Virus record (IMG/VR): IMGVR_UViG_3300002145_000088
Span: 1 to 50,481 of that record
DNA from: a virus
Strand: one strand, 5' to 3'
DNA: 50,481 nt
Shown here: one piece after another, positions 525-26,972 of the stretch
Position numbering within the stretch: position 1 is the first letter of the stretch
How the letters are laid out: each line of letters starts with the position of its first letter
Program-made: the position numbers and the translations under genes
The notes under the pieces: model-generated
Told to the model about the DNA's origin: nothing
What the model saw: the letters and a program-made list of their open reading frames with translations, nothing else
Databases searched by the model: none

Positions 525-540
525 AAACACTCCTAATATA

Positions 541-598
541 ACAGAATCCGTTTTTCTTTTTCCAATAAAAAGTAAATTTGTTTGCTGAATGGATTCTT
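541..598 (-). repeat. AGAATCC/GGATTCT element, copy without tRNA
   Basis: On the minus strand a 7-base stem AGAATCC/GGATTCT encloses CAGCAAA near its 5' side and AAAAACG near its 3' side. The same outer sequence encloses a permuted tRNA at 2559-2673. This copy holds only an AT-rich filler and sits between tRNA-Thr(TGT) and the ribosome-binding site of the peptidase-like gene. Confidence 0.7.
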
Positions 599-676: not shown

Positions 677-685
677 TTAATTCTT

Positions 686-713
686 TGGCTGACCGAGTTG
701 GATTCGAACCAGC
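686..713 (-). other. orphan tRNA 3' half (T-arm, acceptor strand, CCA)
   Basis: The stretch has a T-arm GCTGG-TTCGAAT-CCAAC (one mismatch), then TCGGTCA, discriminator G and CCA, exactly as the 3' end of a tRNA. No matching 5' strand TGACCGA lies at tRNA distance; the best nearby partner is GAGCCGA at 806-812 (5 of 7 pairs) inside the tRNA-Asn locus. A small hairpin TTCA/TGAA precedes it like a variable arm. It may be a remnant or one half of a split gene. Confidence 0.6.
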
Positions 714-750
714 AAAATTCAAATATATGAAGAAATGATCTAAAGTTAGA

Positions 751-841
751 TGTAAAGCTGTGGGGGTGGAGAACGATTCCACCTGTTTCGGATTAACAGT
801 CCGACTCGGCTCACCAATGAACGATACCCCACAGCTTTACA
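751..841. repeat. 15-bp perfect inverted repeat around tRNA-Asn
   Basis: TGTAAAGCTGTGGGG at 751-765 pairs with its exact complement at 827-841. Half of it is the tRNA-Asn acceptor stem; the other half extends that stem into the flanks. The right arm begins directly where the 5' tRNA-half-like sequence (842-872) ends. Confidence 0.85.
758..833 (-). tRNA. tRNA-Asn(GTT), atypical
   Basis: The acceptor TGTGGGG/CCCCACA is perfect and followed by discriminator G, as expected for Asn. The anticodon arm TCGGA-CTGTTAA-TCCGA is perfect with anticodon GTT. The T-stem GTGGA/TCCAC is perfect but its loop is ATCGTTC instead of TTCRANY. The D region is longer than normal (22 nt between acceptor and anticodon stems). 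CCA is not encoded. The acceptor pairing continues outward for 8 more base pairs (751-758 with 834-841). Confidence 0.75.
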
Positions 842-872
842 CCCAACTGCACTACCGCTGTGCTATCCTGGA
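842..872 (-). other. tRNA 5' half-like sequence after ribozyme
   Basis: TCCAGGA, then TA, then a textbook D-arm GCAC-AGCGGTA-GTGC, then A and GTTGGG. No 3' strand TCCTGGA follows within tRNA distance, so no complete tRNA can be folded from it here. It starts 10 nt 3' of the predicted hammerhead cleavage site. Confidence 0.55.
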
Positions 873-874
873 AT

Positions 875-972
875 TTATCCTTTACGACAAGGGCTCTGTC
901 TAGATCAGATGTGCGACTTATCGTTTCGTCCTCTAAGAAAGGAAATAACAGCGAGGACTCATCAGAAGGTAA
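875..972 (-). ncRNA. type I hammerhead ribozyme
   Basis: On the minus strand CTGATGA (965-959) is followed at once by stem II GTCCTC/GAGGAC (958-953 with 933-928, 19-nt loop) and then GAAA (927-924). Stem III is 8 pairs, ACGATAAG (924-917) with CTTGTCGT (891-884). The cleavage triplet is GTA, and the cut falls after A883. Stem I then pairs CCTT (969-966) with AAGG (882-879) and, past one bulged A, ATT with TAA-side bases 877-875. All conserved core bases are present. An 8-nt match between the 5' leader (AATAACAG) and loop II (CTGTTATT) could form a pseudoknot. A promoter ends about 12 nt upstream, so the transcript begins with the ribozyme. Confidence 0.9.
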
Positions 973-990
973 CTGTTATTCGATGTTTGT

Positions 991-1885: not shown

Positions 1886-2458
1886 TCAATTCTTAGATAC
1901 TAGTTGCCTGACTCGAGAATGCTTCGGCAAAAAATCTGACAAAAACGACATCTGATCAGCCAAGATATTTCTGTTCTGCAGAATCAACCCCTCGGCCTTG
2001 TCTGGTACATATGGAACATAAAGTAATTCTAGTCCCGAGTCCTCTAACAACATATCATCCTTATATGAGTTGCATCGAGTGCATGCAGTCACACAATTTG
2101 TCCAAGTGTTAGGACCACCTCGAGAAACAGGAACAATATGGTCCTTTGTCAGTTTAGATTCAGTGTAATTTTTACCACAGTAAGCACAAGTGTACAGATC
2201 CCGTCGAAAAAGATTCTTGTTACTTAAAGCAGGAGTTCTGTTCTCATAGTGAAATTTAGACTTTAGTGCTATGATAGAGGCTACTTCGATTTTTGATCTT
2301 TCTCCTGTGATGCGAGATACTCCACCTTGAAACATAAATTCCTCGTCGCCAAATTCCCAAGCGACCAATCCTTTACATTTCAAAGTGATTGCATCTTGCC
2401 AAGACATCCAGCTGTGTGGTTGTCCACCACTGTTAAGAGTCAAAATTAAATGCCGCAT
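1886..2458 (-). CDS. HNH endonuclease
   Basis: This 190-residue protein has a C-terminal HNH domain: CAYCG, then DHIVPVSRGG, W-N-V and CTRCNSYK, giving two zinc-binding CxxC pairs and the catalytic His. Free-standing HNH nucleases of this type are mobile genes common in T4-like phages. The ATG at 2458 has GGAGG five bases upstream; longer starts would run into tRNA-Phe (2478). Its position inside the tRNA array suggests a selfish insertion or a guardian of the array. DNA target unknown. Confidence 0.88.
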   Translation of the reverse strand: MRHLILTLNSGGQPHSWMSWQDAITLKCKGLVAWEFGDEEFMFQGGVSRITGERSKIEVASIIALKSKFHYENRTPALSNKNLFRRDLYTCAYCGKNYTESKLTKDHIVPVSRGGPNTWTNCVTACTRCNSYKDDMLLEDSGLELLYVPYVPDKAEGLILQNRNILADQMSFLSDFLPKHSRVRQLVSKN

Positions 2459-2477
2459 AATAGCCTCCGATAAATTT

Positions 2478-2553
2478 TGGTGCCGCTTGTTGGTTACGCT
2501 CCAACCTCTCATGCTCTTCAGGCATGCGCTTTCACTAGATTAGCTTAAGCGGC
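2478..2553 (-). tRNA. tRNA-Phe(GAA)
   Basis: The acceptor GCCGCTT/AAGCGGC is perfect, with A and CCA. The anticodon arm CATGC-CTGAAGA-GCATG is perfect with GAA. The T-stem GTTGG/CCAAC is perfect but the loop is AGCGTAA, and the D-loop AATCTAGTGAA lacks GG. Confidence 0.82.
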
Positions 2554-2558
2554 ATAAC

Positions 2559-2673
2559 AGAATCCGTTTTTTAGTGCTCTACCAACTGAGCTACTGACTC
2601 TAAAGAATCAGGCAGGACTCGAACCTGCGACCACTCGCTTACCAGGCGAAATATTATTTGCTGCAAGGATTCT
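2559..2673 (-). repeat. AGAATCC/GGATTCT element enclosing permuted tRNA
   Basis: AGAATCC (2673-2667, minus strand) pairs with GGATTCT (2565-2559) and brackets the permuted tRNA. Inner edges CAGCAAA and AAAAAACG match the copy at 541-598, which has no tRNA inside. Confidence 0.7.
2576..2650 (-). tRNA. circularly permuted tRNA-Thr(GGT)
   Basis: In minus-strand order: anticodon arm TTCGC-CTGGTAA-GCGAG (anticodon GGT), variable TGGTC, T-arm GCAGG-TTCGAGT-CCTGC, acceptor 3' strand CTGATTC, linker TTTA, acceptor 5' strand GAGTCAG, TA, D-arm GCTC-AGTTGGTA-GAGC. All stems pair and all consensus bases (T8, GG in the D-loop, TTC in the T-loop) are present, but the 3' part precedes the 5' part. Read as an ordinary tRNA, the upstream sequence gives no D-arm. 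The break falls between D-arm and anticodon arm, near position 26. Confidence 0.75.
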
Positions 2674-2693
2674 TAATTCGTTACATGCTCACC

Positions 2694-2721
2694 ATTATAT
2701 ACACATTTAAAATAATGTCAA
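2694..2721 (-). promoter_or_regulatory. sigma70-type promoter of tRNA/HNH unit
   Basis: Minus-strand TTGACA (2721-2716), 16-bp spacer, TATAAT (2699-2694). Perfect hexamers; reads into the permuted tRNA, tRNA-Phe and HNH gene. Confidence 0.88.
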
Positions 2722-8945: not shown

Positions 8946-9662
8946 CTATACTCCAAAATATCTTGCTATATTTTCACGATGACCTTTGATATATCTAAAC
9001 AAGGTTTGTAGTTCAAAGGGAAGTTTGTTATAAAGATCATACATCTCTAATTCTGCTTGCTGCGAATTGTAGTTAGTTCCTCTGGGATGGTCGATAGTGT
9101 GGTTATAGTCGCGAATGACTGGTCTTGCTTTAAGAAAACTAAATGCTGGTAAAATTATATCCCATCCCCAACCCATTTTACATTTTTCCATCTCAATATT
9201 TGCAGCATGAAAATCCTCAATTATATTCTTGTCAATAAACCAACAAGTGCAATCAGGACAGGCAACCATCTTAAGATTATCATCGACAAGTTTAATATTG
9301 TTGATATCTGTTTTAGAAGAATCATACCAAGTATAGTCAACATTTGGTGCATAGATACCCCACATATACTTTTCATGATACATCAAAGCATCATCAATAA
9401 GTTTTTGCCAGTTGTTATATGATGCATCCGCCTGAACATGAAAAAGAATGTCACCCTGAAACAACTTTAGAGCCATTAGAAATTGTGCTGTAAAGTATGC
9501 ATCATTTCCAATGTTAATCCATTCAGGCTCATAATCAGTAACAGCATCATCACTATTGATGACTGTTACTTTTAAGCCATCAATTTTACTAAGTTGTTCT
9601 TCTTTTTGCTTAGCTTTTTCGTATTGTCTGGGCCAATTAAAAATAAATGAGTGTATTTGCAT
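8946..9662 (-). CDS. putative glycosyltransferase
   Basis: A 238-residue protein beginning MQIHSFIFNWPRQYEKA, with YFTAQFLMALKLFQGDILFHVQADASYNN in the middle (given here in part as GDILFHVQADASY), where QAD takes the place of a DxD metal motif, and WFIDKNIIEDFHAANIEMEK after it. The layout is that of a GT-A transferase. The start at 9662 is chosen over 9698 because it begins at the first strand of the fold and shortens the overlap with the GT10 gene. Confidence 0.62.
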   Translation of the reverse strand: MQIHSFIFNWPRQYEKAKQKEEQLSKIDGLKVTVINSDDAVTDYEPEWINIGNDAYFTAQFLMALKLFQGDILFHVQADASYNNWQKLIDDALMYHEKYMWGIYAPNVDYTWYDSSKTDINNIKLVDDNLKMVACPDCTCWFIDKNIIEDFHAANIEMEKCKMGWGWDIILPAFSFLKARPVIRDYNHTIDHPRGTNYNSQQAELEMYDLYNKLPFELQTLFRYIKGHRENIARYFGV

Positions 9663-10533
9663 CTCTCGATTCAATCTTTCTATATACAATTGCATCAAAC
9701 CAGTTCAAAAAGTTATCATACTGAAAGTATGCAGGTGGAATGTTGTAAAGAAACTTAGGTTGACTTACAATACGCGTATACAAATCTTCATCGTTATCGA
9801 TTGCTAGAATTGTATCGATACAATGATCAATTTCTTTATAAGCATGAACATTGATAAATGCTTGTGGATTAAAATCTAATGATACTGTTGGACTTCCCCA
9901 ATAGATAGGAATAGTACCAGCATAGAATGCATGTAGAATTTTTTCTGTTACATAACCTGGATGAGAACCACTTTCAAAACAGATATTGAACTTATGTTTT
10001 GCCAGATAATCAACCTTGGCCACTTCACCATCTAGATTAACATCGACATTCTTTAGATGTCTACCTGCACTGTTAACAGGTTTTCTAGCATTTAGTTTGG
10101 TAAAGAAAACGTTACGTTCTTTACAAGTACCATTACTTACAACAAAAGAACAGAAATCTGTCTTTTGTTGAATATGATTCTCTAGTATATATCCCTGGTT
10201 ATAAGGTGTTTTGTGAATATGTTCTAGAGCCCAAATATAGATCATGAACAACGGTAGACGATAATGCCAGGAATTAAAGTTATGATCGAAGGTAATAGCA
10301 TAATGGCAGTCATAGTTTTCAGGTCTACGATTCTCACCAGTATAGAAGATCTTGATACAATCATTCTTTGAAAAGTTTCGATTGTTAGTACCAAAGTTTT
10401 CATCACCAAAGATGAGAAAATCTGGATTATCATGATCAATTTCTATATCATATCGTTTAGACAATACATTGTAAAAGAAACTTGCTAAGTGTTCATGTGT
10501 ATCAGTAAATCCTAGTTTCAATTTAGATTTCAT
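9637..10533 (-). CDS. GT10-type fucosyltransferase
   Basis: This 298-residue protein ends with the GT10 alpha-1,3-fucosyltransferase signature: KFNICFESGSHPGYVTEKI followed by AFYAGTIPIYWGSP, the GDP-fucose binding loop, and then FNPQAFINV. The N-terminal half is variable, as usual for acceptor binding. Because the same island encodes GDP-fucose/GDP-colitose-type enzymes, the donor is likely made by the phage genes. Overlaps the next gene by 26 bases. Confidence 0.9.
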   Translation of the reverse strand: MKSKLKLGFTDTHEHLASFFYNVLSKRYDIEIDHDNPDFLIFGDENFGTNNRNFSKNDCIKIFYTGENRRPENYDCHYAITFDHNFNSWHYRLPLFMIYIWALEHIHKTPYNQGYILENHIQQKTDFCSFVVSNGTCKERNVFFTKLNARKPVNSAGRHLKNVDVNLDGEVAKVDYLAKHKFNICFESGSHPGYVTEKILHAFYAGTIPIYWGSPTVSLDFNPQAFINVHAYKEIDHCIDTILAIDNDEDLYTRIVSQPKFLYNIPPAYFQYDNFLNWFDAIVYRKIESRDANTLIYF

Positions 10534-11450
10534 AGTCTATTCAACTCTCTTTCAATTACAGTTTTAACATTTTCTCGCGAGTGATCAGTTACCAAATGAT
10601 AATCACACTTCTTATCTATACCATTTGACATTGATTCACGTTCACCACGACTAAATGAGATAATCTTTTTAGAAGAATCCATGAGATTTTGGTATGTCTC
10701 ACAAAACACAAATGGGCCTGAATTCTTACCTATAATCATATCACATTTGGTGCTCAAATACGATATCTCATTTAGATCACAATTGTTTAAACTTCTATCA
10801 TTCCATGGTGTCTTATAAGCATATTCATCTTTATCTGCAATGATATCATCAGTAAAGAAAACATTAGATTCTTTACAGTTAAATTTCTTAGTACAGATGA
10901 AATCTATGTCACTATACTTAGTAGCAAACTCCTTCACTTCTTCTTCTAATGAAGATTGAAATGATTGATTGGACATAGGAGCACCATTACATAGTAAAAC
11001 TTTCTTTGTATTACTTCTTTGTTCTAAAAATTTTTCGATTGTCTCTAGATTGAAAAAAGAGTAATCAATAGTAGGAAGATACTTAGCAACATCATTATAA
11101 GTTACTAAATGTGTACCAAACAAACTATTAATAGTTTCGTATATAGTTTCCCAACTTCTAGACAAAGATTGTAGATTGACTCCACCACATTCATTGAAGA
11201 TCTGTGAATGCACGCCGATCCATGTATTGATTAGTAAAATATCTTCATGTCTATAAAACAAATGATTTTGGGGTACTTTAGGTACTCCAGTTAAAGGTAT
11301 TTTTAGATCTAAATTTACTTTAGGATGATTGAAGTGCCAATACTCATAATCAACATTCTTCAATACACTTTTTATCTCACGTACAAATTCTTTATGAGTA
11401 AATAAATCACCTCTATGATAGTGATTGAAGAAAATAATTCTATTAAACAT
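10530..11450 (-). CDS. putative GT-B-like glycosyltransferase
   Basis: The 306-residue protein has no clear catalytic motif. It begins MFNRIIFFNHYHRGDLFTHK and has a second half with KKVLLCNGAPMSNQ, a Rossmann-like strand-loop, and CDMIIGKNSGPFVFCE, which resembles the nucleotide-sugar site of GT9/ADP-heptosyltransferase-like folds. Function is inferred mostly from being inside the glycan island. The ATG at 11450 overlaps the previous stop. Confidence 0.5.
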   Translation of the reverse strand: MFNRIIFFNHYHRGDLFTHKEFVREIKSVLKNVDYEYWHFNHPKVNLDLKIPLTGVPKVPQNHLFYRHEDILLINTWIGVHSQIFNECGGVNLQSLSRSWETIYETINSLFGTHLVTYNDVAKYLPTIDYSFFNLETIEKFLEQRSNTKKVLLCNGAPMSNQSFQSSLEEEVKEFATKYSDIDFICTKKFNCKESNVFFTDDIIADKDEYAYKTPWNDRSLNNCDLNEISYLSTKCDMIIGKNSGPFVFCETYQNLMDSSKKIISFSRGERESMSNGIDKKCDYHLVTDHSRENVKTVIERELNRL

Positions 11451-11787
11451 TATCAATACCTTTATACAACTTCACTGAATCTTCGACTAAACTTTTGTTT
11501 CGTGTAATGGCATCATCAACCATTAGATTGATTGCTTGCACAAACCGAGGTCTTTTTACTTTAAAGCAGATATCAATCTTGCGTTTTAATTCTGCTATTT
11601 CAGCATCAGATTTTGCTGCCTGTATTGCATCTTCTAACATCCAAGTACGAATGTGAAGAATAACTAATTTCTCAATCACTTCACCTAGATTATCTGTTGC
11701 TACATATTCTGTATCTGGTAGAGTTCTTTGTGAGAGAGTGTTTTTAACGGCTTGTCTGATTGCTTGTTCTATCGATAGTCCTACCAT
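11443..11787 (-). CDS. DUF4254-like small protein
   Basis: A 114-residue all-helical protein. LVILHIRTWMLEDAIQAA and IAELKRKIDICFKVKRPRFVQ recall the L-x-x-x-x-x-x-LW---D-AR and VK--ID--NQ-RN pattern of DUF4254 proteins from LPS gene clusters. The similarity is from memory and weak. AAGGA lies five bases before the ATG. It separates two transferase genes in the glycan island. Confidence 0.5.
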   Translation of the reverse strand: MVGLSIEQAIRQAVKNTLSQRTLPDTEYVATDNLGEVIEKLVILHIRTWMLEDAIQAAKSDAEIAELKRKIDICFKVKRPRFVQAINLMVDDAITRNKSLVEDSVKLYKGIDNV

Positions 11788-11789
11788 GA

Positions 11790-12677
11790 TTATCCTTCAC
11801 TTAATTCTTTTGCTATATAATGATCTATTGCTTTTCCTGAGGGAACACAATTAAAGATTCTTGCTTCATTTGCGGAGAGAATTCCCTGTACTGCTCTACC
11901 GTTTTGTGTCACGCAGTGATGTGAACCATGATAGTACGTAAAGTTCGGTATAATTCGAATCTTTTCTTTACTAGAGAATGCTTTTAGTACTATACCCGAG
12001 ACAACATGGTCACCCCATCTGTTATAGAAGAAGTCTGGATTTTCTATCAATTTGTTTAGAAAACTCTGCACTTCATTCTGAAGAAAGAACTTAGTTTTAG
12101 CAACATAAAGATTTGTATAAGGAACCCACAATTCAGTTTGATCGTAGTCGGATACTTTCCACTTTTCATTTGAGATAGATTCTGCAAAAGATGGAATAGT
12201 TGTATTTGTGAGTGTGTGCGTTTCTTCACAAAATCTACCAACCATATAGTCCAAATCATGTGATTCCATATATTCAAATATATCATAACTCAAATGATCA
12301 ATCAATGTATCTTCATCAATTCTAAAAATGTAATCAAATTCTTTACAATAATTCCAAATATGTACAGAATTGAAAGCACACATAATTCTGTATCCAGGAT
12401 GAAACCCAGAATCTTTCATCAAACTAGGATTGCAGTAACTAGGCCATTGAAAGTGCGTTGATACATTGACGAATCTAACATCAGAATTTTTGCCGTTTTC
12501 AATGATAAACTTCTGGTGATCTTCAGGAATATTTCCTTCATGGAAGATCACCAGAGGATAATGCTGTTTCAGATGTTTATTAAAATGCTCGTAGATATGA
12601 GCATTTCTCTGAATCAGTTTACCATACCATTCTTTTTGCTGATACCCTCGAGTTAGAATTACTATTGCTGCTTTCAT
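11790..12677 (-). CDS. GT15-like mannosyltransferase
   Basis: The 295-residue protein carries the markers of GT15 (yeast KRE2/MNT1) alpha-1,2-mannosyltransferases: GYRIMCAFNSVHIWN, DYIFRIDEDTLIDH with the metal-binding acidic motif near residue 117, and FFYNRWGDHVVSGIVLKAF, the strongest family signature. GT15 enzymes use GDP-mannose, the same precursor consumed by the neighbouring Gmd. It lacks an N-terminal membrane anchor. A eukaryote-type family in a phage is notable. Confidence 0.75.
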   Translation of the reverse strand: MKAAIVILTRGYQQKEWYGKLIQRNAHIYEHFNKHLKQHYPLVIFHEGNIPEDHQKFIIENGKNSDVRFVNVSTHFQWPSYCNPSLMKDSGFHPGYRIMCAFNSVHIWNYCKEFDYIFRIDEDTLIDHLSYDIFEYMESHDLDYMVGRFCEETHTLTNTTIPSFAESISNEKWKVSDYDQTELWVPYTNLYVAKTKFFLQNEVQSFLNKLIENPDFFYNRWGDHVVSGIVLKAFSSKEKIRIIPNFTYYHGSHHCVTQNGRAVQGILSANEARIFNCVPSGKAIDHYIAKELSEG

Positions 12678-13840
12678 AGTAATTCTCCGATAATCTTATG
12701 CAGAAATTCCATATTTTTGTAATTTACAAAATGATTATTGCCAATATAAACACCTTGTTTCTGAATGATATCGAGATTGGTGATCTTCTTTGTGGTTGTT
12801 AAATCGTATTTCTTTAGAAATGGTTGATCTAGTAGATTTCCACTTACAATGGGCCGATACTCGATACCATACTTAATAAAGATCTGTTTAAGTTTTCTCA
12901 TTGTATCTTCTGTTCTGCAGATAAAAGGAAAACAGAAACTACTAGCATAAGCATCATGGTTATGTGAGTAAAACAAACGATCATAATATTTGATTATATC
13001 ACAGTATCTTAGATAGTTACTATATCTTTGTCTATTCATCCAATCAAGACGTTTTAACTGCTCAATACCTAGAACAGCACAGATTTCATGGTTTCTAAAG
13101 TTATAACCATCAGTCATAAAGAGAAATTGTTTGTCTATATGTGGATGTGCATTAGCATACATATCAAACCAAGTTGATTCTCTTGCTAATCCATGACTAC
13201 GTTTCATTCGCATGAGATCATAAAGAAGATCATTGTTAGTGCAAACCATACCACCTTCAATAGTGGACATATGATGACCGAAGTAAAAACTAAATGTAGC
13301 ACCTAAACTATTTGAACCTCTCTTTACTCCAGAAGTCCCTCTTTCAGTGCAACCATGTGACTCACAAATGTCCTCTAAAATAAGAGCATTAGGAAAAATA
13401 TCTTTTAGTCTTCCACAATCACTTGGAAATCCTAGTAAATGTGTAGTAAAGATTAGTTTAATATCTGGATGTATTCTTGATATGTTTTTTGCTTCTTCAT
13501 AATCAAAACTAAAGTCTTGTAGATTAATATCACAAAAGATAGGTTGAAGACCTAACTGAATGATAGGTGCTACATTAGTCATCCATGTGCAACCAGGTAG
13601 AAGTACTTTATCGCCTGGTTGCAGATTAAAATGCTCTTTGACAGCAGCGATTAGAAGAAAGTTTGCTGTACTACCACTAGAGACAAATAACGAATGTTTA
13701 CACCCCAACCACTCACTCCATCGTTTTTCAAACTCATAAACTTTTTTGCCGTTTGTAAACTTTTTTGTGGTAAGCACAAATTGCGCCATTTTTAATCTAT
13801 CACCAAACGTGATAGTTTCACCCATCAAAGGCCATCTCAT
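12674..13840 (-). CDS. ColD-like GDP-4-keto-6-deoxymannose 3-dehydratase
   Basis: This 388-residue enzyme has the DegT/DnrJ/EryC1/StrS fold: FVSSGSTANFLLIAA near residue 52, the PLP-binding acid EDICESHG, and the active-site loop FYFGHHMSTIEGGM. The Schiff-base Lys of aminotransferases is replaced by His, the hallmark of ColD, which removes the 3-hydroxyl in GDP-colitose synthesis. RfbH shares a His in this loop but acts on CDP-sugars and has iron-sulfur ligands not evident here. Flanked by Fcl- and Gmd-like genes, ColD is the best fit; the exact product is inferred. Confidence 0.82.
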   Translation of the reverse strand: MRWPLMGETITFGDRLKMAQFVLTTKKFTNGKKVYEFEKRWSEWLGCKHSLFVSSGSTANFLLIAAVKEHFNLQPGDKVLLPGCTWMTNVAPIIQLGLQPIFCDINLQDFSFDYEEAKNISRIHPDIKLIFTTHLLGFPSDCGRLKDIFPNALILEDICESHGCTERGTSGVKRGSNSLGATFSFYFGHHMSTIEGGMVCTNNDLLYDLMRMKRSHGLARESTWFDMYANAHPHIDKQFLFMTDGYNFRNHEICAVLGIEQLKRLDWMNRQRYSNYLRYCDIIKYYDRLFYSHNHDAYASSFCFPFICRTEDTMRKLKQIFIKYGIEYRPIVSGNLLDQPFLKKYDLTTTKKITNLDIIQKQGVYIGNNHFVNYKNMEFLHKIIGELL

Positions 13841-14775
13841 AGATAACGATCCTTATTAGCAATAAACCAGTTAACTGTTCTTTCTAAACCTTCTTCAAAT
13901 GAAATCTTTGGTTTCCAACCTAAAGAAAACAACTTTGAATTGTCAATTTTACGGCGAGGTGTTCCATTTGGTTTAGCAGTATTCCAAAAGATTTCACCCT
14001 CATAACCAATCTTTCTTTTAATGATATCAGACAAATCTTTAATGGTGATCTCTACATCACTACCAATGTTGATATGTTCAGGTGAATCATAATAATTCAT
14101 TAAGTAGATGCAGGCATCTGCTAGATCATCAACATAAAGAAACTCTCTTGTTGGTGTACCATCGCCCCAGGCTTCTACTTGTGACGACTTCTTTACTTTA
14201 GCTTGATAAAACTTATTAATCATTCCAGGAATAACGTGGCATCTATCTGGATGAAAGTTATCATTGACGCCATAGAGATTTGCTGGCATCACACTAATAG
14301 CATTGAATCCAAGCTGTTTATGATACGCCTGACACATACGTAGACCTGCAATCTTAGCTAAAGCATATGGTTCATTAGTTGGTTCTAATGGTGCAGTGAG
14401 TAGATATTCTTCTTTAATCGGTTGAGGTGTTACCTTAGGGTAGATACATGCGCTACCTAAAAACAATAACTTTTTACAATTTACATGCCAAGCAGAATTG
14501 ATTACATTATTCTGAATAGCCAAATTATCAAAAATAAAGTCTGCTGGATGAGTAGCATTATAGTTGATACCACCAACTTTTGCTGCTGCAAGAAAAACAT
14601 AATCAGGTTTTTCTTTTTCAAAAAATTGACTGACTTGAGATTGTGATCTAAGATCAAGATTCTCTTTACCGATAGTGATGATATTAGTATAACCCAATTC
14701 AGATAGACGTCTTACCAATGCTGATCCAACTAAACCTCTATGACCAGCCACAAAAATTTTACCATGTTCATTCAT
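13837..14775 (-). CDS. GDP-fucose synthase or ColC-like epimerase/reductase
   Basis: The 312-residue product is an extended [17 protein letters not shown] binds NADP(H) at the N-terminus, and SACIYPK with YALAKIAG gives the Ser-Tyr-Lys triad. Length and the N-terminus match GDP-L-fucose synthase (Fcl/WcaG), which epimerises and reduces GDP-4-keto-6-deoxymannose. ColC of GDP-colitose synthesis is a close relative, and the adjacent ColD-like gene makes either role possible. ATG 14775 overlaps the Gmd stop. Confidence 0.9.
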
Positions 14776-15778
14776 CATTGCACATCTCATCTACTAATTT
14801 TTCAAATGTATATTCTGGTTTCCAACCTAATACTTCTCTTGCCTTTGTTGCATCACCTAGTAATGTTTCAACCTCAGAAGGTCTGAAATAGCGGGAATCG
14901 ATCTTAATAACTGGTTGGCATGTAAAACGATCATAACCAATCTCATTCAATCCTTCACCTTCCCAATAGATACTCATCTTAAAATGTGGTGCACATGCCT
15001 CCACAAATTCTCTCACTGAGTATTGTTCACCAGTAGCAATTACAAAATCATCTGGTTCATCTTGTTGCAACATCATCCACATTGCTCGGACATAATCTTT
15101 TGCATGACCCCAGTCGCGTTTTGCATTTAGATTACCTAGGTAAAGTATGTCCTGTTTACCCTTAGCTATATTTCTCAATCCATCTACAATCTTCTTTGTC
15201 ACAAAATTATGACCACGACGGGGAGATTCATGATTGAAAAGTATACCAGTACAAGCAAACATGTTATATGCTTCACGGTAATTTTTAATGATCCAATAGC
15301 CATAAATCTTTGCTACACCATAAGGTGAACGAGGATAAAATGGAGTAGTTTCTTTTTGTGGAGTCTCTTGAACTAAACCATACAGTTCAGATGTAGATGC
15401 TTGATAGATTTTAGTAAAGCCCTCTAGGCCTAGTAGACGAACTGCTTCTAAAATGCGTAGAGTTCCTAGAGCATCAACTTGTGCAGTGTATTCAGGAATC
15501 TCAAAAGAGACTTTTACATGGCTTTGCGCTGCTAGATTATATATTTCATCGGGTTCAATTTTCTGAATCACTGAAGTAAGCGAAAGAGAATCAGTAACAT
15601 CTCCATAATGAAGTTTTAGATCTGGATGATCATAGATATGATCTATTCTACTTGTATTGATAGAAGAACTACGGCGAATGATTCCATGAACCTCGTAATT
15701 CTTATTTAACAGAAGTTCGGTCAAATAACTACCATCTTGACCAGTAATACCTGTAATTAATGCAACTTTTTTACCCAT
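14768..15778 (-). CDS. gmd: GDP-mannose 4,6-dehydratase
   Basis: The 336-residue enzyme converts GDP-mannose to GDP-4-keto-6-deoxymannose. It shows [19 protein letters not shown] (NADP binding), [14 protein letters not shown], the catalytic STSELYG with [10 protein letters not shown], and [18 protein letters not shown], all Gmd signatures. It is first in the glycan operon, after a hairpin terminator at 15821-15844, and supplies the substrate for both following enzymes. Confidence 0.97.
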
Positions 15779-25006: not shown

Positions 25007-25509
25007 CAATCATCCTCAAAAAGATTCTCATTCCATTCTCTATGACCTTCACGAAACGCCATATTGCTTTGTGTTTCCCGCACTTCTACTCTAAAACACC
25101 AAAGCCTATCCGCCTCACCCTGACCTAACATATCTGAAATAAAGACACCATTGATATACTTATACAGCATATCTGCAAGGCCTTCGCAACCAAGTCGAGG
25201 GAGAATTGTAAGTTTGGCTAGTTTCTTTTCCTGTAAAGATTTAAATGTTTCAATTTCTGGATCATCGCGGCTGACTAATAAAGTATGATCAAATTGATCT
25301 TCTAAGATTCTTTTCAGATCACGCAAACCACCATAGTCGACTACCCAGTTTCTGACATCTAGTTCATCGGTACCAAAGTAAAACTTCATACTAAAAGAAT
25401 ACCCATGAATCTGATTGCAGTTAGAATCAGCTCTCCACTGACGATAAGCACAAGGAAAGGCATCAATATATTCTTTTGTCGATACGAACTTGTATACTAC
25501 TGGTTGCAT
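25006..25509 (-). CDS. QueD/PTPS-like protein with altered zinc site
   Basis: A 167-residue T-fold protein resembling 6-carboxytetrahydropterin synthase. The catalytic Cys is kept in CNQIHGYSF, and VVDYGGLRDLKRIL, FDHTLLV and the C-terminal RVEVRET match the family. The zinc triad is not: the first His position reads AYRQW and the HGH motif reads HGY, so two of three ligands are Tyr. It may be a variant enzyme or have lost activity. It lies among FolE, QueE and DpdA-like genes. Confidence 0.8.
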   Translation of the reverse strand: MQPVVYKFVSTKEYIDAFPCAYRQWRADSNCNQIHGYSFSMKFYFGTDELDVRNWVVDYGGLRDLKRILEDQFDHTLLVSRDDPEIETFKSLQEKKLAKLTILPRLGCEGLADMLYKYINGVFISDMLGQGEADRLWCFRVEVRETQSNMAFREGHREWNENLFEDD

Positions 25510-25518
25510 TCTTTTACC

Positions 25519-26568
25519 TCATGAAAGCAGATGATTTATCATCACTTTAGGAGTAAGATAATCATCTATAAGAATTTGTCTCTGTTTCTCCATATCATCA
25601 TATAGAAAAACATAATTGTAAATATTATCAATAAATTTAAGCAAATTATGTTTACATTTTTGATAGTTGTCAAATGATGATGTCCATTCAGACGGATACT
25701 TAAATACATCTAGATACATTTCACTATATGAGCATCTATCTGGAACAATCGGAATAGCTCCTGCCAAAGTACCTTCCATCATACTTATACCAAGATTTTC
25801 ATGTAGAGAGCAACTAAATACTGCTCTAGCTTCACCTAAAAGTTTATAATATGATTCTTTTGATAAATTTTGTTCTTGAGTTAAAAGTACATCGTAATAA
25901 CGAATCAAATCTCTAGCAATCTCTGGTTGCTTATCCTCATTCAATCTATGAGGAAACATGATAGTATTACTCTTTAAGTTTTGTTTAAGTGGGGTTAACT
26001 TTTCAATGATAGGAGTATGTGGTTGTCCTGATCTATATGCGCGAGAAGGATTTACACTGAGATTATTCACAAACATATTTAGATGAAAATATGTGGCAAA
26101 GTAGTTATAATCACTAGCGTAATACCAAGATCTTTCTTGATTAGAAGCCCAATTTGTAGACATTCTCATACCCAAGATGTCTGATGGATCATAGTTGCCA
26201 GCATGCCAAATAGAATGAATTTCTACAGGAACATTAAGTAGCTCACTCATGTATTTGATAGCAGTGATTGCAAAGTTCCAAGCATCAGTGACTAGAAACT
26301 TATCACCAGGTCTAACCAAATTATTATTAAAAAGTCTACTGATTAATTCTACTTGTTTTGACTTGTAAGTATTTGTTGTCGCAAAATCTAAGAAAGCACC
26401 TTTTGTAGTACCTTCATTTAGCTGCAATCCATCAATTGTGTGGACAATATAGTTCAGTTTTCTTTCAGTAATTTCTTCTCTAAGAATCTTAGGAATATTA
26501 GTATACCATTGTTCAGTATATCTCTGATCAATAGGTTCAATGGGGACAATAAAGATTGTTTTAATCAT
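25519..26568 (-). CDS. GT-B glycosyltransferase, putative
   Basis: The 349-residue protein has the two-lobed GT-B layout: an N-terminal half with GDKFLVTDAWNFAITAIKYM and EIHSIWHAGNYDPSD, and a C-terminal half with IMFPHRLNEDKQP, ARAVFSCSLHENLGISMMEG and GAIPIVPDRCSY, the E-x7-E-like nucleotide-sugar site of GT4 enzymes. It stands apart from the glycan island, inside the deazaguanine cluster, so a DNA-base sugar acceptor is possible but unproven. Confidence 0.72.
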   Translation of the reverse strand: MIKTIFIVPIEPIDQRYTEQWYTNIPKILREEITERKLNYIVHTIDGLQLNEGTTKGAFLDFATTNTYKSKQVELISRLFNNNLVRPGDKFLVTDAWNFAITAIKYMSELLNVPVEIHSIWHAGNYDPSDILGMRMSTNWASNQERSWYYASDYNYFATYFHLNMFVNNLSVNPSRAYRSGQPHTPIIEKLTPLKQNLKSNTIMFPHRLNEDKQPEIARDLIRYYDVLLTQEQNLSKESYYKLLGEARAVFSCSLHENLGISMMEGTLAGAIPIVPDRCSYSEMYLDVFKYPSEWTSSFDNYQKCKHNLLKFIDNIYNYVFLYDDMEKQRQILIDDYLTPKVMINHLLS

Positions 26569-26972
26569 TATACTTTCTTAAACTTTAAAATAGCACCGTT
26601 TTCATCATCCTCGTACACCTTTATCACTAAATCTCTATTCTTAAATCTATCATATCTTTGTAGAAGATTAAAAAGATCCTCTGCAAGCATTTCACATGAC
26701 TTATAATCTACATTCATGGTTCCCGAAGAATATTCTTTTTCAAGCCATCTTTTAAACTGAATAAATTCAATCTCACGATCATTGTGAGTAACTGCAATTG
26801 AGACATAGAAATGAAATATATGTCTATGGGGATGGGCTAAAAAAGATACATCTAGATAATCTCCAGTAGCCAGATTTGTATCTTTTTCTGCAGCAGGATA
26901 ACGGTGAATACCTTCACGAGTAAACTTAACTTCAATCCATCTTTCAGCATGAAATCCATTATTCATATTCAT
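26568..26972 (-). CDS. QueD/PTPS-like T-fold protein, putative
   Basis: A 134-residue protein. Aligned by eye to the PTPS pattern, GIHRYPAA supplies a first His, HPHRHIFHFYVSIAV a second and third, DREIEFIQFKRWLEK the strand-helix after them, KSCEMLAEDLFNLL the T-A-E-N-like helix and VIKVYEDDENGA the terminal Glu. So it appears to keep the zinc triad missing from the 25006-25509 protein. This is a distant-homology guess; otherwise it is a conserved phage protein of unknown role. It overlaps the DpdA-like gene by ATGA. Confidence 0.5.
   Translation of the reverse strand: MNMNNGFHAERWIEVKFTREGIHRYPAAEKDTNLATGDYLDVSFLAHPHRHIFHFYVSIAVTHNDREIEFIQFKRWLEKEYSSGTMNVDYKSCEMLAEDLFNLLQRYDRFKNRDLVIKVYEDDENGAILKFKKV

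What the first reader, a model, noticed from the sequence alone, without database searches (positions are those of the whole stretch)
2559..2673. Circularly permuted tRNA-Thr(GGU) gene
The anticodon arm, variable loop, T-arm and acceptor 3' strand come first; after a TTTA linker follow the acceptor 5' strand and a textbook D-arm. Every stem pairs (acceptor GAGTCAG/CTGATTC). A linear reading has no D-arm. Permuted tRNAs are established in red and green algae and some archaea; I know of none in phages. A 7-bp stem AGAATCC/GGATTCT joins the flanks at the junction that would need splicing.
Basis: partly seen in the sequence, partly recalled or inferred. Interest (0 to 1): 0.93.

Follow-up and report, generated by a model that had tools for sequence, protein, structure and literature searches.

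The report
Phage Ro-linked tRNA-mimic noncoding RNA
What looks like a tRNA gene with its halves swapped is most likely one member of an overlooked family of small phage RNAs that display pieces of tRNA on a fixed stem and sit beside a gene for a Ro60-like RNA-binding protein, a pairing found in many cultured phages.

Summary
In detail: on the minus strand 2673-2559 the anticodon arm, T-arm and acceptor 3' strand precede the acceptor 5' strand and D-arm. No such cloverleaf appeared in 300 shuffles or 2.1 Mb of controls. The better join is 28|29, not 26|27. The splicing reading is not supported. The 'junction stem' AGAATCC/GGATTCT plus CAGCAA is the frame of a separate RNA family, with a second copy at 597-543 that has no swapped tRNA. 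I found about 50 members in tRNA-rich phages. Stem pairing is compensatory (37/42 versus 5.8 expected). A covariance model built only from short members finds the window element at E=5e-5, and nothing significant in 1.2 Mb of controls. Inserts show tRNA pieces: an anticodon hairpin alone, or a whole permuted cloverleaf like Y RNA YrlA, with acceptor loops of 2-6 nt here and in the closest relatives. Members lie next to DUF2828 genes, including in E. coli phage finno, Listeria CKA15 and Mycobacterium Faith1. The DUF2828 model's nine best PDB matches are all Ro60/TROVE. Best reading: a Y-RNA-like tRNA mimic of a Ro-like RNP. The frame also resembles dictyostelid Class I RNA; homology is unproven. 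Function is inferred.

The parts
2694..2721 (-). Sigma-70-type promoter TTGACA-16-TATAAT, 12 of 12 matches, about 20 nt upstream of the RNA
   Evidence: consensus match only
2667..2673 (-). P1 5' strand AGAATCC (preceded by A: AAG start)
   Evidence: pairing supported family-wide
2658..2663 (-). Conserved motif CAGCAA, three bases after P1
   Evidence: CAGCAA gives 64 framed hits versus 2-14 for 12 decoy motifs
2634..2648 (-). Anticodon-hairpin mimic, positions 29-43, loop CUGGUAA (GGU, Thr)
2612..2628 (-). T-arm GCAGG-TTCGAGT-CCTGC
2594..2611 (-). Acceptor-stem hairpin CTGATTC-TTTA-GAGTCAG closed by a 4-nt loop, no CCA
2573..2593 (-). T8-A9, D-arm GCTC-AGTTGGTA-GAGC, A26, C27-T28 (27-28 pair with 42-43)
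2559..2565 (-). P1' 3' strand GGATTCT, followed by GTTA (CTGT end)
2555..2677 (-). Whole ncRNA with permuted tRNA-like module; covariance model R1 match at 2553-2678, 34.6 bits, E=5e-5 (model built without it)
539..598 (-). Second ncRNA of the same family without the permuted tRNA: AGAATCC-ATT-CAGCAA ... GGATTCT-GTTA, with hairpin TTTTT-ATTGGAA-AAAGA resembling an anticodon arm (UGG); Rfam RF01414 34.1 bits
   Evidence: R1 64.3 bits, but a training member
2481..2553 (-). tRNA-Phe(GAA), ordinary neighbour directly downstream, CCA encoded
1886..2512 (-). HNH endonuclease used to find the closest relatives (L328, L329/L479)

Best explanation
The element is a small structured noncoding RNA, not a tRNA precursor. 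A short stem joins its ends (AAG-stem ... stem-CUGU), CAGCAA follows the 5' strand, and the loop displays a tRNA-like module; here that is a complete permuted cloverleaf with anticodon GGU and an acceptor stem closed by UUUA. It belongs to a phage RNA family that is the counterpart of Y RNAs for a Ro60-like protein (DUF2828, phrog_850). Proposed mechanism: the stem plus CAGCAA binds the DUF2828 ring protein, and the variable insert presents a tRNA piece that recruits or competes for tRNA-recognising factors during infection (modification enzymes, synthetases, or anticodon nucleases of host defence). Shown by computation: the architecture, the family, covariation of the stem, adjacency to DUF2828, and the Ro60 fold of DUF2828. 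Inferred: binding of this RNA by DUF2828, and the decoy or tether role. Estimated: RNA-family identity 0.9; DUF2828 as binding partner 0.8; competing for tRNA-recognising proteins 0.4.
For: Second copy of the frame in the window without swapped tRNA halves. About 50 curated members. With only outer anchors fixed, inner stem bases pair 4/4 in 37 of 42 cases versus 5.8 for shuffled partners, in 16 different combinations. Model R1, built from short members only, finds the window element (E=5e-5) and others; best control score E=0.5 in 754 kb of contigs that each hold AAGAATCCNNNCAGCAAA, and no hit in 459 kb of Ro60/YrlA loci. Inserts hold an anticodon hairpin in 31 of 64 raw hits versus 3.35 shuffled. 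DUF2828 found in 21 of 35 searched records, mostly missing in short fragments, and absent in three element-free T4-like relatives; TROVE absent in all 23 records tested. Members lie 12-400 nt from DUF2828 genes and within 1.5 kb in 6 of 8 sampled isolates. DUF2828 model (pLDDT 79.9, pTM 0.82): nine best PDB matches all Ro60/TROVE, E 5e-9 to 2e-6. The RNA folds in place with all expected stems. In Listeria phage CKA15, three very abundant noncoding regions lie within 2 kb upstream of the DUF2828 gene CKA15_055; a three-RNA cluster of this family lies at 25,282-25,557 just upstream (PMC12282133).
Against: No DUF2828 gene lies in the 50-kb window fragment; it is present in the nearest relatives' contigs (L328, L479). 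The only CKA15 abundant region given with coordinates (26,236-26,727) does not overlap the RNAs, so their expression is not proven. Two of eight isolates (ValKK3, Munch) have no member within 1.5 kb of DUF2828. The folding z-score of the window element is modest (-1.94). A YrlA partial match is expected for any T-arm followed by a D-arm; adjacent ordinary tRNAs give about 24-25 bits. About half of the inserts have no recognised anticodon hairpin. The Foldseek TM-scores are moderate (0.47-0.61).
Confidence: 0.82

Rival explanations
1. True circularly permuted tRNA gene: the flanks pair, an endonuclease cuts at 28 and 29, a ligase makes a circle, and RNase P plus 3' processing open the acceptor end to give functional tRNA-Thr(GGU).
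For: Rearranged sequence is called tRNA-Thr(GGT) by ARAGORN; all stems and the conserved D-loop GG and T-loop bases are present; positions 27-28 continue the anticodon stem; some other family members hold ACCA or GCCA in the linker (L505 DLP6, L134, L373).
Against: Acceptor strands joined by UUUA only; no CCA, although the array tRNAs inspected encode it; the flanks are shared with RNAs that have no tRNA halves to join; sister RNAs lack whole arms; no bulge-helix-bulge motif was recognised; the family sits with a Ro-like protein gene.
Confidence: 0.07
2. Debris of tandem tRNA duplication and deletion in a fast-changing tRNA array, without function.
For: Phage tRNA arrays rearrange often; the two halves match one tRNA; similar half-tRNA sequences occur in L188 and L373.
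Against: Precise 28|29 boundary, stem and CAGCAA recur in unrelated phages with compensatory changes; perfect promoter consensus directly upstream; adjacency to DUF2828 in many genomes.
Confidence: 0.05
3. Ordinary YrlA-type Y RNA bound by a classical Ro60/TROVE protein.
For: Same order of tRNA-like parts; RF02553 match of 44.6 bits over model 24-84.
Against: The Ro-binding part of the model (1-23 and 85-114) does not match; no TROVE gene in 23 records tested, against 25 of 26 classical YrlA records; model R1 finds no member in 459 kb of classical YrlA/Ro loci.
Confidence: 0.04
4. A small intron at tRNA position 28|29 (self-splicing or protein-spliced), present in linear and permuted genes.
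For: Linear forms exist with the same stem inserted at 28|29: L188 tRNA-Asp-like, L412, and with the YrlA stem in L415, L138, L152, L450 and Anaerolineae L493/L496.
Against: The linear forms mostly lack a correct CCA; the same stems occur free of tRNA; the YrlA-type insert is the known Ro-binding stem. These fit linear versions of the same mimics.
Confidence: 0.02

Closest known systems
YrlA, Y RNA-like (Rfam RF02553; Chen et al. 2014, doi 10.1261/rna.047241.114, cited from memory of the abstract and from PMC7790460/PMC12282133)
   Same: Order of tRNA-like parts: anticodon-like hairpin, T-arm, acceptor hairpin with a short loop, D-arm; partner protein of Ro60 fold; encoded next to it
   Different: The protein-binding stem is replaced by a stem plus CAGCAA; the partner is DUF2828, not TROVE; many members show only an anticodon hairpin; many copies per phage
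Dictyostelid Class I RNA (Rfam RF01414; Kjellin et al. 2021, PMC7919456)
   Same: Stem of 6-7 bp joining the ends with compensatory changes, end CUGU, motif next to the 5' strand with C6, C9, A10, A11, and about 52-67 nt for the short members; window 542-596 scores 34.1 bits, L328 37.7, L479 30.5
   Different: Below the gathering score (41.5); most members do not reach E=0.05; start AAG in only 8 of 51 and T3 in 24 of 51; phage instead of amoeba; tRNA modules not described for Class I RNA; homology not shown
Circularly permuted tRNA genes (red and green algae, Thermofilum pendens; PMC3978253, PMC3218864)
   Same: 5' half encoded after the 3' half; flanks pair
   Different: 4-nt acceptor loop without CCA; flanks are a conserved RNA frame shared with RNAs that hold no tRNA; partner Ro-like protein
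Ro60/TROVE RNPs (Deinococcus Rsr, Xenopus Ro60, Thermus phage phiLo Ro60)
   Same: DUF2828 model matches the whole Ro60 fold; vWA with a DxSxSM motif; small RNAs next to the gene
   Different: Sequence similarity detectable only in the vWA part (hhalign E=1e-12); different RNA motif

Membership tests
Circularly permuted tRNA gene | 3' half precedes 5' half and the rearranged sequence is a full cloverleaf | tested here: met
Circularly permuted tRNA gene | Intervening sequence that allows 5' and 3' acceptor ends to be matured (leader, discriminator, CCA or room for it) | tested here: not met
   Linker UUUA of 4 nt, no CCA; neighbours encode CCA
Circularly permuted tRNA gene | Ends joined (circular intermediate, mature tRNA detected) | not testable with these tools
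   needs RNA-seq of infected cells
YrlA Y RNA (RF02553) | tRNA-like module in YrlA order | tested here: met
   RF02553 44.6 bits, E=4.6e-8, model 24-84
YrlA Y RNA (RF02553) | Whole-model score above gathering (69) including the Ro-binding stem | tested here: not met
   44.6 bits, positions 1-23 and 85-114 unmatched
YrlA Y RNA (RF02553) | TROVE/Ro60 gene in the genome | tested here: not met
   0 of 23 records of this type, 25 of 26 classical YrlA records; the window itself is only a fragment
Dictyostelid Class I RNA (RF01414) | Stem joining ends, conserved motif beside it, CUGU end | tested here: met
   searches compared with PMC7919456
Dictyostelid Class I RNA (RF01414) | Score at or above the gathering cut-off | tested here: not met
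   window 542-596 34.1 bits; the permuted element 18.6; most members not listed at E 0.05
Dictyostelid Class I RNA (RF01414) | DUSE promoter element about 60 nt upstream | not tested
   eukaryotic promoter, not expected in a phage
Ro60 fold family (for DUF2828) | Ring of helical repeats plus vWA domain | tested here: met
   AlphaFold model, Foldseek top nine all Ro60/TROVE
Ro60 fold family (for DUF2828) | Binds Y-like RNA | not testable with these tools
   needs pull-down or binding assay

The most novel reading that the evidence does not exclude
DUF2828 is the second great branch of Ro proteins, and its RNA partner, with a stem plus CAGCAA, is the same in bacteriophages and in dictyostelid Class I RNAs. 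Phages use a panel of these RNAs, each showing a different anticodon arm or tRNA mimic, as decoys or adaptors against host anticodon nucleases or for tRNA quality control.
Probability: 0.2. Interest if true: 0.95.

Novelty: new variant of a known kind. Interest (0 to 1): 0.82.

Why it matters
DUF2828 proteins are encoded in at least 682 sequenced phages, including common laboratory types, mostly annotated as hypothetical or RNA-binding. A defined RNA partner family makes their function directly testable. The RNAs show a modular tRNA mimicry (anticodon arms of many specificities, sometimes a whole permuted cloverleaf), which suggests a general phage strategy towards tRNA-recognising proteins. 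The likeness to dictyostelid Class I RNAs, described as unique to social amoebae, offers a concrete lead to their unknown binding partners.

Tried and rejected
Linear tRNA reading of the interval: below cut-off. Splicing or intron reading (self-splicing ribozyme, tRNA-splicing-endonuclease-like): pursued because of linear forms at 28|29; dropped when classical type-B flanks proved to be YrlA beside Ro genes. Search for the nearest relatives through the clamp loader gp44 gave contigs without the element. BLAST for known phages with the same DNA failed because the family diverges fast. The RF01414 match was tested on more members and does not generalise, so homology with Class I RNA is not claimed. 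A first statistic on stem pairing is biased by selection and was replaced by the anchor test. TROVE as partner rejected. The CKA15 abundant region with given coordinates (26,236-26,727) gave no R1 match.

Full report
What is in the sequence. On the minus strand, 2673-2559 reads AGAATCC-TTG-CAGCAA-ATAATATTT, an anticodon hairpin with loop CTGGTAA (GGU), a T-arm, the acceptor 3' strand CTGATTC, TTTA, the acceptor 5' strand GAGTCAG, a standard D-arm, A-C-T, AAAAAAC, GGATTCT-GTTA. ARAGORN finds nothing in place but calls tRNA-Thr(GGT) when the halves are swapped. Rfam's linear tRNA reading is below cut-off (25.4 bits). A permuted cloverleaf with seven acceptor pairs was found in 0 of 300 dinucleotide shuffles and in 0 of 2.1 Mb of control strands. 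A perfect TTGACA-16-TATAAT lies about 20 nt upstream.

The flanks are not splice flanks. The same flanks occur again at 598-539 (minus strand): AAGAATCC-ATT-CAGCAA ... AAAAAC-GGATTCT-GTTA, around a small hairpin and without swapped tRNA halves. In the closest relatives, found through the HNH endonuclease, L328 has this short form after the equivalent tRNA-Thr, and L329/L479 has both short forms and another permuted form (Thr UGU). A scan of IMG/VR for T-arm then D-arm then CTAAA gave 80 stretches of DNA, nearly all permuted tRNA-like elements split at 28|29. They fall in two types by their flanks.

Type B is a known thing. Its flanks hold a helix with a bulged U, CGUAG/CGAAG and CGUUUGUU. In named phages it sits next to 'Ro-like RNA binding protein' (Mycobacterium phages Sparky and prophiGD43A-5, Microbacterium phages FuzzBuster and Magritte), and Rfam matches it to YrlA, the Y RNA-like family, below the gathering score. 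The Ro protein domain TROVE is in 25 of 26 type-B records. So the 'permuted tRNA' order is that of the tRNA-like module of Y RNAs. The window's module also matches YrlA, but only in that module (44.6 bits, positions 24-84 of 114).

Type A is the window's type. Its frame is AGGATNN-NN-CAGCAA-[insert]-NNATCCT-GTTR. Fixing only the outer bases and the motif, the inner four stem positions pair perfectly in 37 of 42 cases versus 5.8 for shuffled partners, with 16 different combinations. CAGCAA gives 64 framed hits versus 2-14 for twelve decoy motifs. A covariance model from 27 short members, none of them the permuted kind, finds the window element (34.6 bits, E=5e-5) and 67 other matches in tRNA-rich phage loci. 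In 754 kb of contigs that each contain AAGAATCCNNNCAGCAAA its best match has E=0.5, and in 459 kb of Ro60/YrlA loci it has none. The stem covaries (biased by selection). Inserts contain an anticodon-like hairpin in 31 of 64 raw hits versus 3.35 after shuffling; in 51 curated members, 24 hold an anticodon hairpin (UGU, UUU, UGG, UCU, UGA and others), 8 of them together with a T-arm, and 10 hold a T-arm alone. The window element folds in place with P1, anticodon hairpin, T-arm, acceptor hairpin and D-arm, -33.7 kcal/mol, z -1.9.

The partner. None of 23 searched records (type-A contigs plus the window and a few relatives) has TROVE. DUF2828 (PF11443, phrog_850 'RNA-binding protein') is in 21 of 35 records; the gaps are mostly short fragments, and three element-free T4-like relatives lack it. 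The RNAs lie beside the gene: 46 and 269 nt in L182, 48 and 283 nt in L466, 138 and 244 nt in L164, about 12-16 nt in L479, several in tandem in L515. A protein search finds DUF2828 in 682 phage isolates. Of eight fetched, six have the RNAs within 1.5 kb: Listeria LMTA-57 (three), Escherichia phage finno on K-12 (three, one with a permuted tRNA-like module closed by AGAG), Mycobacterium Faith1 (three, one with a permuted tRNA-like module), Aeromonas 4_4572 (seven), Campylobacter CP30A (two), Synechococcus BUCT-ZZ01 (three). Vibrio ValKK3 and Salmonella Munch have none that near.

DUF2828 has the Ro60 fold. The AlphaFold model from twelve sequences (pLDDT 79.9, pTM 0.82) matches Ro60/TROVE structures in the nine best PDB hits over the whole chain (9kop, 1yvr, 2i91, 2nvo, 1yvp, 9l5y, 9nfa; E 5e-9 to 2e-6, TM 0.47-0.61). 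By sequence the link to TROVE is seen only in the vWA part (hhalign E=1e-12). Annotators already call the mycobacteriophage members 'Ro-like', and the authors of the Listeria phage CKA15 study matched CKA15_055 to Rsr by HHpred and guessed that three very abundant noncoding regions nearby might be Y RNAs (PMC12282133). The three-RNA cluster found here lies at 25,282-25,557, directly upstream of CKA15_055. The paper's one coordinate range (26,236-26,727) is a different stretch, so expression of the cluster is plausible but not shown.

Resemblance to dictyostelid Class I RNA. Kjellin et al. (PMC7919456) describe RNAs of about 60 nt that start AAG, end CUGU, have a 6-bp end-joining stem with compensatory changes and an 11-nt motif with C6, C9, A10, A11, and state that they are unique to dictyostelids. 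The phage frame has the same layout, and Rfam RF01414 matches window 542-596 at 34.1 bits, L328 at 37.7 and L479 at 30.5, all below the cut-off of 41.5. Most phage members do not match, AAG is the minority start and T3 is present in 24 of 51. I treat it as a lead, not as homology.

How it may work. By analogy with Ro60 and Y RNA (Deinococcus Y RNA tethers Rsr to PNPase; PMC7790460), the stem and CAGCAA would dock on the DUF2828 ring, and the insert would present a tRNA piece. [quoted passage not shown] A set of RNAs showing different anticodon arms would suit that, but nothing here tests it.

Limits. The window is a 50-kb fragment without DUF2828. No expression, binding or processing data exist for this phage. 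The 2014 paper that defined phage and bacterial Y RNAs was not available to me, so I cannot exclude that some DUF2828-linked RNAs were noted there.

Noticed in passing
window 920-990 (-), and L328 5775-5835: Hammerhead-ribozyme-like core (CUGAUGAG-UCCUC ... GAGGA-CGAAAC) within the tRNA array, repeated in the relative L328 as CUGAAGA ... GAUGAAAC; not called by Rfam at the gathering score.
   Followed up: no
window 680-905 (-): A tRNA-Asn-like sequence (758-833) inside a 15-bp extended stem, enclosed by what look like a D-arm and a T-arm of another tRNA: a nested tRNA arrangement. Rfam's Y_RNA model scores weakly here (24.4 bits).
   Followed up: no
L415 3953-4146, L138 1067-1318, L152, L450, L493, L496: Linear (unpermuted) tRNA-like RNAs with the YrlA Ro-binding stem inserted at 28|29 like an intron, some in tandem; L493/L496 are Anaerolineae/Chloroflexi MAGs.
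   Followed up: partly
L188 7908-8022 and L412 2154-2280: Linear tRNA-like RNAs (Asp GUC, Asn GUU anticodons) with the CAGCAA stem inserted at 28|29, without a normal CCA end.
   Followed up: partly
L466 10040-10147: Family member whose insert is a linear D-arm, anticodon arm and T-arm without an acceptor stem.
   Followed up: no
L425 6948-7355: Permuted tmRNA (RF04321, 97 bits; RF01850, 95 bits) in a phage contig with many tRNAs.
   Followed up: no
L328 6421-6515, L010 7730-7824 and other relatives: tRNA-Ile(UAU) calls of about 95 nt with an unusually long variable arm, repeated across T4-like relatives.
   Followed up: no
L505 6001-6165 (Stenotrophomonas phage DLP6): Family-like permuted tRNA module whose linker holds ACCA and a long spacer, unlike the short closed loops elsewhere.
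   Followed up: partly
L527 780-1440 (Listeria phage cka15): The most abundant noncoding region of CKA15 (26,236-26,727) gives no match to model R1; its identity stays open.
   Followed up: partly
window 8946-15778 (-): Sugar cluster: fucosyltransferase FucT, glycosyltransferase 15, DegT aminotransferase, GDP-mannose 4,6-dehydratase and epimerase genes.
   Followed up: no
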